Shown here piece by piece: positions 39,121 through 42,378 of a stretch of DNA of 64,000 nucleotides. The position numbers and the translations under genes are program-made. How positions within the stretch are numbered: position 1 is the first letter of the stretch; each line of letters opens with the position of its first letter. The notes under the pieces are model-generated. The model was not told where the DNA came from, did not search any database, and worked only from the letters and a program-made list of their open reading frames with translations. Source of the stretch: Glossina fuscipes. Lineage: Eukaryota; Arthropoda; Insecta; Diptera; Glossinidae. The DNA is taken from NCBI RefSeq assembly GCF_014805625.2, contig NW_023998417.1, positions 10,236,563 to 10,300,562 of the forward strand. Reading direction: 5' to 3'.

Positions 39121-39384
39121 ATGGACTGCTTTAAATGGCTTTACGTTTTATTATTGACTTTTCTAACGCTTTGTGAATGCGACAGAGCCGTATTGGTGCC
39201 GGTAATTGCGTTCTCCAAATTTCGTTATCGAAAAATTTTCTTTAATTCATATAAATTTTAGGAGCCGCGCCATCCAGACATGCTTTTATTTAATGCACCT
39301 AATCAATATAGAAAATGTGGACGAAGGCACGATGGTCGAGCAATCAAATGCAATGATTTCGGTTTATCGGGAGGATTGGTGTGA
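39121..39384 (+). CDS. Small secreted single-disulfide peptide, member A
   Basis: Unrecognised two-exon gene, 39121-39201 and 39262-39384. The 60-bp intron has ideal ends (GTGCCG|GTAATT ... aaattttag|GAGCCG, phase 0). The 67-residue product begins with a signal peptide (MDCFKWLYVLLLTFLTLCEC, cleavage probably near residue 20-22). Exon 2 reads EPRHPDMLLFNAPNQY, then RKCGRRHDGRAIKCNDFG, then LSGGLV. The only cysteines in the predicted mature part enclose the loop CGRRHDGRAIKC, shared in pattern with members B, C and D. Arthropod initiator-like TCAGT motifs lie at 39091 and 39096, and AATAAA lies at 39443-39448, about 60 bp after the stop. It is the only plus-strand member and the most GC-balanced. 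Role unknown: a secreted defence, seminal or signalling peptide are all possible. Confidence 0.7.
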
Positions 39385-39442
39385 ATGAACCATTTTATCG
39401 AATTGTGTGGGCTTTCTTTGTATTGATTTCTATTTTAGAAAT

Positions 39443-39448
39443 AATAAA
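39443..39448 (+). terminator. Polyadenylation signal of peptide gene A
   Basis: AATAAA lies 59 bp past the TGA stop of the gene at 39121-39384. This is the expected position for a short 3' untranslated region. Confidence 0.5.
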
Positions 39449-40582
39449 ATGTCATAGATTGAATAAGAAATGATTTCTAATTTGTGCTTTTGCGTTCAAT
39501 GAAATGAATGCGTTATATAAATAAATCCTTTTGTTTTCCATTGACTTGTTTGCCTGACTTGTTTTTCAAAACAAATTCTCTCAGGATTTCATAAGCTTTC
39601 TGCTAATTTAAAGAACTCTTATCGAGTCGAATATTTAATATGAGACAAAAAAAAAAAGAGAAATGCCTTGGAACTGATTGAAAATATGATTTACAAGTGA
39701 TGCTAGAACGGATAAAAGCAGACGATTAAAGTAAGTTATAAATGGTTAAAAAAACTGCTAAGCTGGGTACACTTCTCTAGTAATGCAGAAGCAATGTTTC
39801 TATAATCTTTGGAATCGGGAAAAAAGTGCGCATTTTACAATCTATTTTTTAATATCGCTCTCTTATCATCCTTACGTCACTTTGTAGTACCAGTTTGACT
39901 CGATCACTTGTCACTTTGAAGTAAGGCAAATAAAAATGGCAAAATTTTCTTTTAAATATGAAATTTTTCTTCTTTTATAAAATCTGTAAGAAATTCGATT
40001 TTTTATGCTCTAAACTCAGGAATGTATTGGAAGCTTCCAATTTAGTTGTAAACACTTTAAAGCGGAAGCATCGCAATATGTTAGTCAGATGAGTTCAATT
40101 GTTTTGCGACGATGTGAGCTTGGCAAAGAGGGAGAAAAGAAAGAGCGTAAGCGTGTGTGAGCGCGTGAAACAGAGAGAGAGAGAGAGAGAGAGAGAGTGA
40201 GAGAAAGCAAGCGGAAGAGAAGATAAGAGTTCAGTAAAATCTGTATAAACCAGATTACTTACTAATCTGATCAGGAACACATTGGAGAGTACTAGACTTC
40301 ATAGAAATCGATTTTCCAATGCAACAAACAACAGTGGATAAAAGGTAATGAGACTCAGGCCTATTTATACCTTGCACAGGCCTATTCATACCTTGTCCGG
40401 CGGAATGAAATTACAATGCACTCCGTACTCAGATTGAGTTTTCTGTCGAATCGTTCGATATCTGCAGGGAAGCAGGAATTAATGCTTTAAATCTACTTTG
40501 ATAACGTAAGCCTTTCATAGGGAGTTTGTGCCATTTGTTCCATTTACTTAAAATCCAATTACATTTTAAATAGTAAAGTATT
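39449..40582. other. Spacer between peptide genes A and D
   Basis: No gene is supported. A perfect GA repeat occupies about 40171-40196. The minus-strand serine/leucine-rich frame across it is a by-product of this repeat. Confidence 0.5.
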
Positions 40583-40940
40583 TTATAATTTTGCCTTTTT
40601 ATTATAAGCAACAAATTGCCTGCGAGAGCAACGCCTTGGTTTGCCGGTATGTGTTAAACCGCAATATGCGAAACGATGTCTAACCGTCAAAATCATAGGA
40701 CTCAATTTCCTTGTGTTTTCTGTTAGCTACAAAATCAGGGAAGAAATACAAAATAAGACAATAAGAACAAAAACAAGAACCGCAAGAAGCAAATCTACGA
40801 TCTGCTATCTCATCGCTTGTCTCATTCATACTTACATTAGTTTTTTTGCGTAATTTAAAAAAATCGGTATTAACCGATTTGCTATAAGTGGAAAAAAAAC
40901 AGCAACAAATTATTATTAATAAAATCTTAATACAATGCAT
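40583..40940 (-). CDS. Small secreted single-disulfide peptide, member D
   Basis: Unrecognised two-exon gene, 40940-40836 and 40726-40583. The 109-bp intron has a near-perfect donor (ACTAAT|GTAAGT) and an acceptor ctgattttgtag, phase 0. The 82-residue product starts with a signal peptide (MHCIKILLIIICCCFFSTYS). Exon 2 encodes LTENTRKLSPMILTVRHRFA, then YCGLTHTGKPRRC, then a basic tail SRRQFVAYNKKAKL. The cysteine pair encloses a 10-residue loop with the family's H-x-G core. This member is the most strongly basic. Reading on past the donor gives a longer, misleading single-exon frame. The function is unknown. A cationic single-disulfide hairpin with flanking arginines is what many antimicrobial hairpins look like, but that is inference. 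Confidence 0.68.
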
Positions 40941-41521
40941 TTTATTGCTATTCGGAACTTATTGTGCTTGCTTTAGACTATTTATTGTTAGCGAACTATA
41001 AACTTTTAAAGACAAACCTCTTCGTTTGATAACAAGCACAAGTGTGCAATAAAAAGCAGATTAAAATAAGAAAAACAAGTAAATAACGATATCCGTCATT
41101 GGTCGTGTCACAGATCATTGTACTGTACTGTGTTTTAAAAGAGTGATGGCTGGCAGATATCAATGCAATTGTGCATACACACATAAATATATGTGCATGT
41201 GTTGCATACGTAATAAAAGTTACAAATAAATACAAAATATGTCACATATATATAATAATAACATCACTCAATAAGTCTACGGCTATGTGAATTTCTCGAT
41301 CGAATATCAACAACCATCAAATGATTTATGTCAACATTTCATGACATTTGAATTATTTGCATCGGTTAACAGCGTTGCCATGTACATGTCAGACCGGAGA
41401 GTTATTGAGCGATGTATGTGATCATATTATGAATAAACATGCATATGCATGTTGTTGTTATTACTTTTCAATTAAATCGAAATTTTGAAATTCTTAGAAA
41501 ATAAATTTTTTTTGGATATTA

Positions 41522-41831
41522 TTATTTGTCTTTTGCACACTTTAACGGGACACCGTTATGTCTATATCCGCAACGTGCTCTAGGACTAAATATCGAAGCC
41601 ACAATAACATCTGGTAACACAGGCTCTGACTGCTATATTAAACAAAATCGAAAGAAATATACTCAAGTTAATAATTTTTAAATGAATTAATTAATCATTT
41701 TTGCAAAGCTCTCTTACATTATTTTCACCACTAGCCTTCAGGCTTTTTGAAGTCATTTGAATTTCTTGACTTAGAAAAATTAACAAAGAAAATATTATTA
41801 AAATTTTGTAACTATTACTGAGCGCAATCAT
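41522..41831 (-). CDS. Small secreted single-disulfide peptide, member B
   Basis: Unrecognised two-exon gene, 41831-41718 and 41632-41522. The 85-bp intron has AATAAT|GTAAGA and an acceptor atatag, phase 0; a second acceptor 3 bp on is possible. The 74-residue product starts MIALSNSYKILIIFSLLIFL, a signal peptide or signal anchor. Exon 2 reads QSEPVLPDVIVASIFSPR, then ARCGYRHNGVPLKC, then AKDK and a stop. The cysteine pair encloses the same 10-residue loop pattern as in A and D. The segment before it (E-P-x-x-P-D-[MV]) also resembles member A (EPRHPDM), which argues for common descent rather than a chance motif. It lies about 130 bp downstream of member C on the same strand. No signal longer than the exons betrays it; it lies outside any frame of 60 codons. 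Confidence 0.7.
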
Positions 41832-41845
41832 GTTGATCTTCTCTT

Positions 41846-41884
<39 letters not shown>

Positions 41885-41954
41885 TAACGATCGATGGAAA
41901 TATTTTATTTTATTTTTTTTTTTGTTTTTTTTTTTTTTTTCAATTTCATTTACA

Positions 41955-41960
41955 TTTATT
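41955..41960 (-). terminator. Polyadenylation signal of peptide gene C
   Basis: AATAAA on the minus strand starts only 2 bp after the TAA stop of the gene at 41963-42378. This would give an extremely short 3' untranslated region. Confidence 0.5.
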
Positions 41961-41962
41961 GC

Positions 41963-42378
41963 TTAACATTTAATTACACTGCCATCGTGCTTGTAGCCAT
42001 CACATCTTCGATTCTTTTTTCGTACCATAAATAAAGATTTTTCTTGTCTTTGACTCTACAAAAATTAATAGAAATTGCGATTGTTTAAGCAAAGACTTTT
42101 TGAGAATTTTAGACAAGACTTTCAGACAAGTTACATTCACGTCAGCTCTCACAACTCACTTGCAATGCTTTATTTGCTATCGCATTAGCAGTTGCTATTG
42201 TTGTTCCATTCACTAACATACTCAGTTGATTTTCTATTTTTACTATTTTCATATAATCACCATCATTATTAATGTTATCATCGTGTTCATCAATTAACTC
42301 ATTTGTTTCAATTAATACGCAATTTATTATGAAAACAGCTACTACTAAGAATGTCATAAGCAATTTATGCAAGCACAT
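41963..42378 (-). CDS. Small secreted single-disulfide peptide, member C
   Basis: Unrecognised two-exon gene, 42378-42160 and 42055-41963. The 104-bp intron has TTGCAA|GTGAGT and an acceptor atttttgtag, phase 0. The 103-residue product has a clear signal peptide (MCLHKLLMTFLVVAVFIINC), then an acidic, asparagine-rich propeptide (NELIDEHDDNINNDGDYMK). Exon 2 is strongly basic (SQRQEKSLFMVRKKNRR) and ends exactly at the second cysteine: RRCDGYKHDGSVIKC and stop. The loop is one residue longer than in A, B and D. An acidic propeptide followed by a basic, dibasic-flanked mature segment is the classic layout of processed antimicrobial or hormone peptides. A long poly-T tract and T-rich DNA separate it from member B. 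Confidence 0.72.

What the first reader, a model, noticed from the sequence alone, without database searches (positions are those of the whole stretch)
39121..42378. A cluster of four undescribed secreted peptides sharing a cysteine-loop motif
Four adjacent two-exon genes each encode a signal peptide, a phase-0 intron and a short basic second exon with one cysteine pair around a common loop. The loops are CGRRHDGRAIKC (A), CGYRHNGVPLKC (B), CDGYKHDGSVIKC (C) and CGLTHTGKPRRC (D). H-x-G and a basic residue before the second cysteine are invariant. Loops are 10 residues (11 in C). Propeptides have diverged almost completely, while intron position and loop are kept. That pattern fits tandem duplication with fast evolution. 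Because the coding parts are 26-73 codons and split, length-filtered gene finders would miss them.
Basis: seen in the sequence. Interest (0 to 1): 0.92.

Follow-up and report, generated by a model that had tools for sequence, protein, structure and literature searches.

The report
Four tsetse hairpin-peptide genes
A tsetse fly chromosome carries a small cluster of four genes for tiny secreted peptides, each probably a hairpin closed by one disulfide bond; one of them is nearly unchanged in a flesh fly, so they look like a real and unstudied peptide family whose job is not yet known.

Summary
Four two-exon genes (A +, D/B/C −) lie at 39121-42378, each with a signal-like exon, a phase-0 GT-AG intron (60-109 nt) and a short exon with one Cys loop. 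The loop pattern occurs 4 times in the window against 0.15 expected. A scan ignoring the loop finds 5 distinct signal-exon/short-exon pairs; four are these genes, and Markov controls average 0.2. Gene A is 100% identical to a predicted protein of Glossina palpalis gambiensis, so the window is tsetse DNA. Relatives occur in G. austeni, G. morsitans, G. brevipalpis and Sarcophaga bullata. D's core is 26 of 29 identical in Sarcophaga, its leader 7 of 25: the core is constrained, against 'fast evolution'. 'Undescribed' needs a limit: automatic annotations exist, one misnamed 'Protein Wnt'. H-x-G is not invariant across orthologs. Pfam, NCBIfam and PDB sequence searches gave no credible relative. 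Two low-confidence models show a hairpin. Best reading: a calyptrate family of secreted, disulfide-closed hairpin ligands, with an older member (D) and diverged local paralogs. Antimicrobial or seminal roles stay open. No expression data could be examined.

The parts
39121..39201 (+). gene A exon 1: signal-like peptide, 27 codons
   Evidence: identical to residues 1-27 of P0002, a G. palpalis gambiensis prediction
39202..39261 (+). gene A intron, 60 nt, phase 0, GTAATT..TTTTAG
   Evidence: P0002 reads across the same junction
39262..39384 (+). gene A exon 2 with Cys loop CGRRHDGRAIKC (39316-39351) and stop
   Evidence: 37 of 40 identical to G. morsitans P0003
40583..40726 (-). gene D exon 2 with Cys loop CGLTHTGKPRRC (40628-40663) and stop
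   Evidence: core 26 of 29 identical to Sarcophaga bullata P0005
40727..40835 (-). gene D intron, 109 nt, phase 0, GTAAGT..TTGTAG
40836..40940 (-). gene D exon 1: signal-like peptide, 35 codons
41522..41632 (-). gene B exon 2 with Cys loop CGYRHNGVPLKC (41537-41572) and stop
41633..41717 (-). gene B intron, 85 nt, phase 0, GTAAGA..ATATAG (an alternative acceptor 3 nt later also keeps the frame)
41718..41831 (-). gene B exon 1: signal-like peptide, 38 codons
41963..42055 (-). gene C exon 2 with Cys loop CDGYKHDGSVIKC (41966-42004), stop directly after the second Cys
   Evidence: 30 of 30 identical to G. austeni P0001, 21 of 30 to G. brevipalpis P0004
42056..42159 (-). gene C intron, 104 nt, phase 0, GTGAGT..TTGTAG
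   Evidence: the predicted proteins P0001 and P0004 read across a junction at this place
42160..42378 (-). gene C exon 1: signal-like peptide plus acidic stretch, 73 codons; TATATAAAA about 73 nt upstream of the ATG

Best explanation
A small family of secreted peptides of calyptrate flies. Each precursor has a signal-peptide exon and, after one phase-0 intron, an exon with the active part: a hydrophobic/basic stretch followed by a hairpin of 12-13 residues closed by one Cys-Cys bond. In A, B and C the [DN]-G after the His would be the beta-turn. Shown: gene models as sequence, family relationship (weakest for D), conservation of D's core in Sarcophaga, diverged leaders. Inferred: signal peptides, the disulfide, the hairpin fold, cleavage of the leader, secretion, and action as an extracellular ligand (hormone-like or paracrine, at a receptor not identified). 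D is read as the older member under strong purifying selection, with A, B and C as diverged copies made by local duplication.
For: Motif and signal-exon excess over controls; leave-one-out HMMs; A's splice equals the G. palpalis gambiensis prediction. D core 26 of 29 identical to Sarcophaga while the part before it is 7 of 25; C exon 2 30 of 30 in G. austeni while exon 1 is 65 of 73: constraint lies on the loop part. Both AlphaFold2 models have a two-stranded hairpin at the Cys loop. For scale, the tsetse genome paper gives 84% as the highest blastx identity of tsetse antimicrobial genes including cecropin to related fly taxa (PMC6721284, passage); D's core reaches 90% across superfamilies, though this core was chosen after seeing the alignment and is short. 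No kappa-B-like site in 1 kb upstream of any of the four genes, where only about 0.8 was expected in all.
Against: No expression, peptide or receptor data. Models have low confidence (mean pLDDT 63 and 59), and in D the second Cys lies one residue past the strand. No dibasic site before the loop is shared by all four (read), unusual for a peptide hormone. The three protein searches returned no relative outside calyptrates, apart from one of unstated origin (P0006), though hormones are often older. The strongly basic cores of C and D would suit an antimicrobial. B and D show no AATAAA/ATTAAA within 400 nt downstream. D's membership is the weakest (E 0.064; C-D pair 59 of 1000 shuffles). For C between G. 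palpalis and G. brevipalpis, exon 2 (21 of 30) is hardly better kept than exon 1 (42 of 64 aligned, 17 gap columns).
Confidence: 0.45

Rival explanations
1. Single-disulfide beta-hairpin antimicrobial peptides, working like thanatin or tachyplesin: a cationic hairpin binds bacterial envelope components.
For: Basic exon 2 (especially C and D), a predicted hairpin, local duplication. Three Riptortus thanatin-like precursors have a signal, an acidic prodomain and a basic C-terminal peptide (PMC11597323, passages), and C's precursor has a similar layout.
Against: The pattern called characteristic of the thanatin family is C-X6-C (PMC11597323, passage); here the loops are 10 or 11 residues. No credible Pfam hit. 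No kappa-B-like sites upstream (weak test). D's core is kept better than the identity reported for tsetse cecropins. Exon 2 of A and B carries four and three acidic residues.
Confidence: 0.25
2. Seminal-fluid peptides, working like Drosophila sex peptide/DUP99B (peptide with a C-terminal disulfide ring), transferred at mating and altering female behaviour.
For: Similar size, basic residue before the last Cys, C ends directly after the last Cys; the resemblance rests on my recall of the sex-peptide sequence. Tsetse flies are reported to lack Acp70A orthologs (PMC5721568, passages), and abundant spermatophore proteins include novel ones (PMC4742874, passages).
Against: 0 of 4 proteins matched a Pfam sex-peptide model. 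Sex peptide and DUP99B are reported only from some Drosophila species (PMC12077777, passages). No tissue data. D's core is more conserved than I would expect of a seminal peptide (inference).
Confidence: 0.15
3. Salivary, gut or milk-gland effector peptides tied to tsetse blood feeding or viviparity.
For: The cluster belongs to a blood-feeding viviparous fly. A metallophosphoesterase gene that I read as sphingomyelinase-like lies about 6 kb away; an acid sphingomyelinase is a tsetse milk protein (PMC6721284, passage).
Against: D has a close relative in Sarcophaga bullata, of a different calyptrate superfamily, which does not feed on blood (recalled). Neighbourhood alone is no evidence of function.
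Confidence: 0.08
4. Chance open frames or decayed genes.
For: AT-rich window full of short frames; no transcript evidence available here.
Against: Motif and signal-exon controls, matching predictions in other Glossina and in Sarcophaga, conserved loop exons.
Confidence: 0.04

Closest known systems
Predicted proteins of the same family: A0A1B0BUQ9 (G. palpalis gambiensis, named 'Protein Wnt'), A0A1A9VVI0 (G. austeni), A0A1A9WPQ0 (G. brevipalpis), A0A1B0FNU5 (G. morsitans), DOY81_011470 (Sarcophaga bullata)
   Same: A: 67 of 67 residues; the others are orthologs of A, C or D by the loop exon
   Different: Automatic names only; the Wnt name has no Pfam support; no function stated in the listing
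Drosophila sex peptide / DUP99B
   Same: Small secreted peptide with one Cys-Cys ring near the C end (recalled)
   Different: No Pfam match; reported only from Drosophila species (PMC12077777, passages); no H-x-G turn (recalled)
Thanatin family (Hemiptera)
   Same: One-disulfide cationic beta-hairpin (PMC11597323, passages)
   Different: C-X6-C loop against C-X10/11-C here
Growth-blocking peptide / ENF cytokines
   Same: C-terminal one-disulfide ligand of about 20-25 residues in a secreted precursor (recalled)
   Different: No such Pfam match; the recalled GBP loop signature (Gly three after the first Cys) is not kept; a paper search gave 2 listings, none opened

Membership tests
Sex peptide / DUP99B | Match to a Pfam sex-peptide model (existence of the model is recalled) | tested here: not met
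   0 of 4 full proteins and 0 of 8 alignment members matched one
Sex peptide / DUP99B | Expression in male accessory gland or ejaculatory duct and transfer to the female | not testable with these tools
   no expression data held
Thanatin family | C-X6-C loop | tested here: not met
   loops of 10, 10, 10 and 11 residues; pattern from PMC11597323 (passage)
Thanatin family | Beta-hairpin closed by one disulfide | tested here: inconclusive
   hairpin in two low-confidence models; disulfide not shown
Growth-blocking peptide / ENF | Match to a Pfam GBP/ENF model (existence of the model is recalled) | tested here: not met
   no such family
Wnt (name given to A's UniRef entry) | Pfam Wnt domain | tested here: not met
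   A has 67 aa and 0 Pfam families at E<=10; no Wnt family among the matches of the 8 members, P0002 included,
This tsetse/flesh-fly loop family | Signal-like exon, phase-0 intron, exon 2 with C-G-x2-H-x-G-x3-[KR]-C | tested here: met
   4 of 4 window genes (C with one extra residue before the Gly). Of 6 database relatives, 5 have the Cys loop; P0004 has H-x-A, P0003 lacks a signal-like start, and P0006 is an unspliced C exon 1 without a loop. Introns of the relatives were not seen as DNA.

The most novel reading that the evidence does not exclude
An unrecognised peptide-hormone family of calyptrate flies: one older ligand (D) kept nearly unchanged between tsetse and a flesh fly, plus three paralogs that diverged. 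Because C, B and D lie in tandem on one strand with every intron in phase 0, and B starts 131 nt after C's stop, one signal exon could even be spliced to several loop exons, giving alternative ligands from one transcript.
Probability: 0.25. Interest if true: 0.78.

Novelty: new variant of a known kind. Interest (0 to 1): 0.55.

Why it matters
Short spliced peptide genes are easily misannotated in disease vectors, as the database entries here show. A family with a loop nearly unchanged across calyptrate superfamilies in one member, no known domain found, and no held paper naming its accession numbers gives a concrete, cheaply synthesised set of orphan peptides to test for hormone, immune or reproductive roles in tsetse flies.

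Tried and rejected
Own-genome search for further copies: the genome search was unanswered in 9 of 9 identical requests, so copy number outside the window is unknown and no tsetse genome was laid out. DNA search in phages: no match, as expected for an insect. Pfam, NCBIfam and PDB-sequence searches gave only hits that I take as chance: Cytochrom_B_N_2 0.15; lept_O_ant_chp1 0.0046, NF005259 0.063 and NF006210 0.088, one member of 6 each; Microp_apicomplexa_2 0.047 and DUF5713 0.063, one member of 8 each; 1q8c 0.93; none; ribosomal S30 2.1. The second protein search (alignment A2) returned the same 6 proteins, and the third (D with P0005) only P0005 out of 27 candidates; no Drosophila, Musca or blowfly relative appeared, but these searches need exact 5-residue words and are blind to unannotated genes. 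Further loop exons in the window: the next HMM hits are at E 0.2 with all four genes in the model, and 0.088 at best with D left out. One of these weak hits, − 56267-56362, has a ring that ends like B's (NGIPIKC) but no His and no in-phase signal exon in the 420 nt before it; such rings average 0.26 in 50 Markov sequences. I set it aside as chance or a relic. Fold searches were not run because the models have low confidence. A kappa-B scan found nothing, but little was expected. Paper searches: accession numbers 0 papers; calyptrate orphan peptides 0; sex peptide with Dup99B and synteny 0; the tsetse neuropeptide search listed 10 of 28, none opened. Supplements could not be read.
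Full report
Observation. In the order A, D, B, C the precursors are 67, 82, 74 and 103 aa and the introns 60, 109, 85 and 104 nt, all GT-AG and phase 0. The loop pattern C-x(1-4)-H-x-G-x(2-5)-[KR]-C occurs four times in six frames of 64 kb, only in these genes; 100 order-2 Markov sequences average 0.15 (max 2). The pattern was written after seeing the four loops, so a test that ignores it matters more. Of 246 acceptor-led frames of 28-60 aa, 7 have an in-phase upstream exon with a signal-like hydrophobic core; these are 5 distinct first exons, and four of the five are A, B, C and D. 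Twenty order-2 Markov sequences average 0.2 (max 1), and the window's count is 6, 6, 5 and 4 at thresholds 1.6, 2.0, 2.3 and 2.6. No dedicated signal-peptide predictor was run; the score is mean hydrophobicity.

Family relationship. Exon-2 HMMs built from three genes plus their relatives find the fourth as the best non-member among 2454 ORF pieces, at E 2e-6 (A), 1.6e-5 (B), 5.1e-5 (C) and 0.064 (D, next hit 0.088). D is therefore the least certain member; by pairs it resembles B (0 of 1000 shuffles as good) and A (3 of 1000) but not C (59 of 1000). One further ring without the His lies on the minus strand inside 56267-56362, ending like B's; it has no in-phase signal exon in the 420 nt before it and is within chance (mean 0.26 in 50 Markov sequences).

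Species and relatives. A is identical over 67 of 67 residues to P0002, a UniRef entry of Glossina palpalis gambiensis named 'Protein Wnt', so the window is from this tsetse fly or a very near relative. The name is not supported by any Pfam match. P0001 (G. austeni) and P0004 (G. brevipalpis) are C orthologs that read across the same junction; P0001's predicted start lies 21 residues upstream. P0003 (G. morsitans) is an A ortholog with a different, not signal-like first part. P0006 is an unspliced C exon 1 from a contig of unstated origin. P0005 (Sarcophaga bullata) is a D ortholog. No B relative and no Glossina D protein is among the hits of three searches.

Selection. D's core is 26 of 29 identical between Glossina and Sarcophaga, which belong to different calyptrate superfamilies; the part before exon 2 is 7 of 25 aligned with 10 gap columns, and the whole of exon 2 is 29 of 37 aligned with 10 gap columns. 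C's loop exon is 30 of 30 identical to G. austeni and 21 of 30 to G. brevipalpis, against 65 of 73 and 42 of 64 aligned for exon 1 (5 and 17 gap columns). A's loop exon is 37 of 40 identical to G. morsitans (all). So in D the loop part is kept and the leader drifts. For C in G. brevipalpis exon 2 (70%) is only slightly better kept than the aligned part of exon 1 (66%), which weakens the contrast there; that ortholog also has H-D-A in place of H-x-G, so the glycine is not invariant. dN/dS could not be computed, as no DNA of other species was at hand.

Structure. AlphaFold2 on exon 2 of D (mean pLDDT 63) and of A (59), each with an eight-row alignment, gives two short strands around the loop: D 21-24 and 30-32, with C22 inside and C33 one residue past the second strand; A 17-21 and 27-32, with C19 and C30 inside. 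The D model also has a helix at 35-45. If A's strands pair symmetrically, C19 faces C30 and D24-G25 form the turn; the pairing itself was not reported by the tool. I read this as a disulfide-closed hairpin with a [DN]-G turn in A, B and C; confidence is low.

Surroundings. The flanking genes look ordinary: ribosomal S18-type protein (24.6 kb), U-box protein (28-30 kb), a metallophosphoesterase (31-33 kb) that I read, from recall of the family, as an acid sphingomyelinase, and a mitochondrial carrier (57-58 kb). C has a TATATAAAA about 73 nt before its ATG and AATAAA/ATTAAA signals within about 80 nt after its stop; B starts 131 nt after C's stop. B and D show no AATAAA or ATTAAA within 400 nt downstream. 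No kappa-B-like site lies in 1 kb upstream of any of the four genes, with about 0.8 expected in 4 kb.

Function. Nothing here shows function. The conservation of D's core against a drifting leader, in a precursor with a signal-like start and one ring, is what a receptor ligand looks like; I give this 0.45. An antimicrobial hairpin (0.25) and a seminal peptide (0.15) are the main rivals. For scale, the tsetse genome paper gives 84% as the highest blastx identity of tsetse cecropins and related antimicrobial genes to related fly taxa (PMC6721284, passages); the comparison is rough, since D's 90% is for a short core chosen after the fact. Tsetse flies are reported to lack sex peptide (PMC5721568, passages), and abundant novel proteins occur in the spermatophore (PMC4742874, passages), but nothing links these genes to either.

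Novelty. No credible relative came from Pfam, NCBIfam or PDB-sequence searches, and the accession numbers of five relatives appear in 0 held papers (supplements not searched). It is a new lineage-restricted family of a known kind, small secreted disulfide peptides.

Noticed in passing
window 51139-51640, - strand: A further two-exon candidate for a secreted protein: signal-like exon MSSFHVLKFIIIILLIVNAS..., GTATG donor, 92-nt phase-0 intron, 68-residue exon 2 (51139-51342) without the Cys loop; the two frames have no Pfam match.
   Followed up: partly
window 56267-56362, - strand: A short frame with a ring CFLFNFNGIPIKC that ends like gene B's loop, without the His and without an in-phase signal exon in the 420 nt before it; chance or a relic.
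   Followed up: partly
window 41832-41962, - strand: Only 131 nt separate C's stop from B's start, with AATAAA/ATTAAA signals and long A runs; C and B may share a transcript.
   Followed up: no
window 31269-32833, - strand: A metallophosphoesterase gene read as sphingomyelinase-like from recall; an acid sphingomyelinase is a tsetse milk protein (PMC6721284, passage). Whether this copy is the milk gene was not tested.
   Followed up: no
P0002 (UniRef A0A1B0BUQ9): A 67-residue peptide precursor carries the name 'Protein Wnt' in UniRef without any Pfam support; probably a misannotation.
   Followed up: partly
window 53664-54257 + and 35797-36153 +: Open frames with similar short segments (such as FGPRTNA and FDPRTNS) recur in the window and may be pieces of a dispersed repeat.
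   Followed up: no
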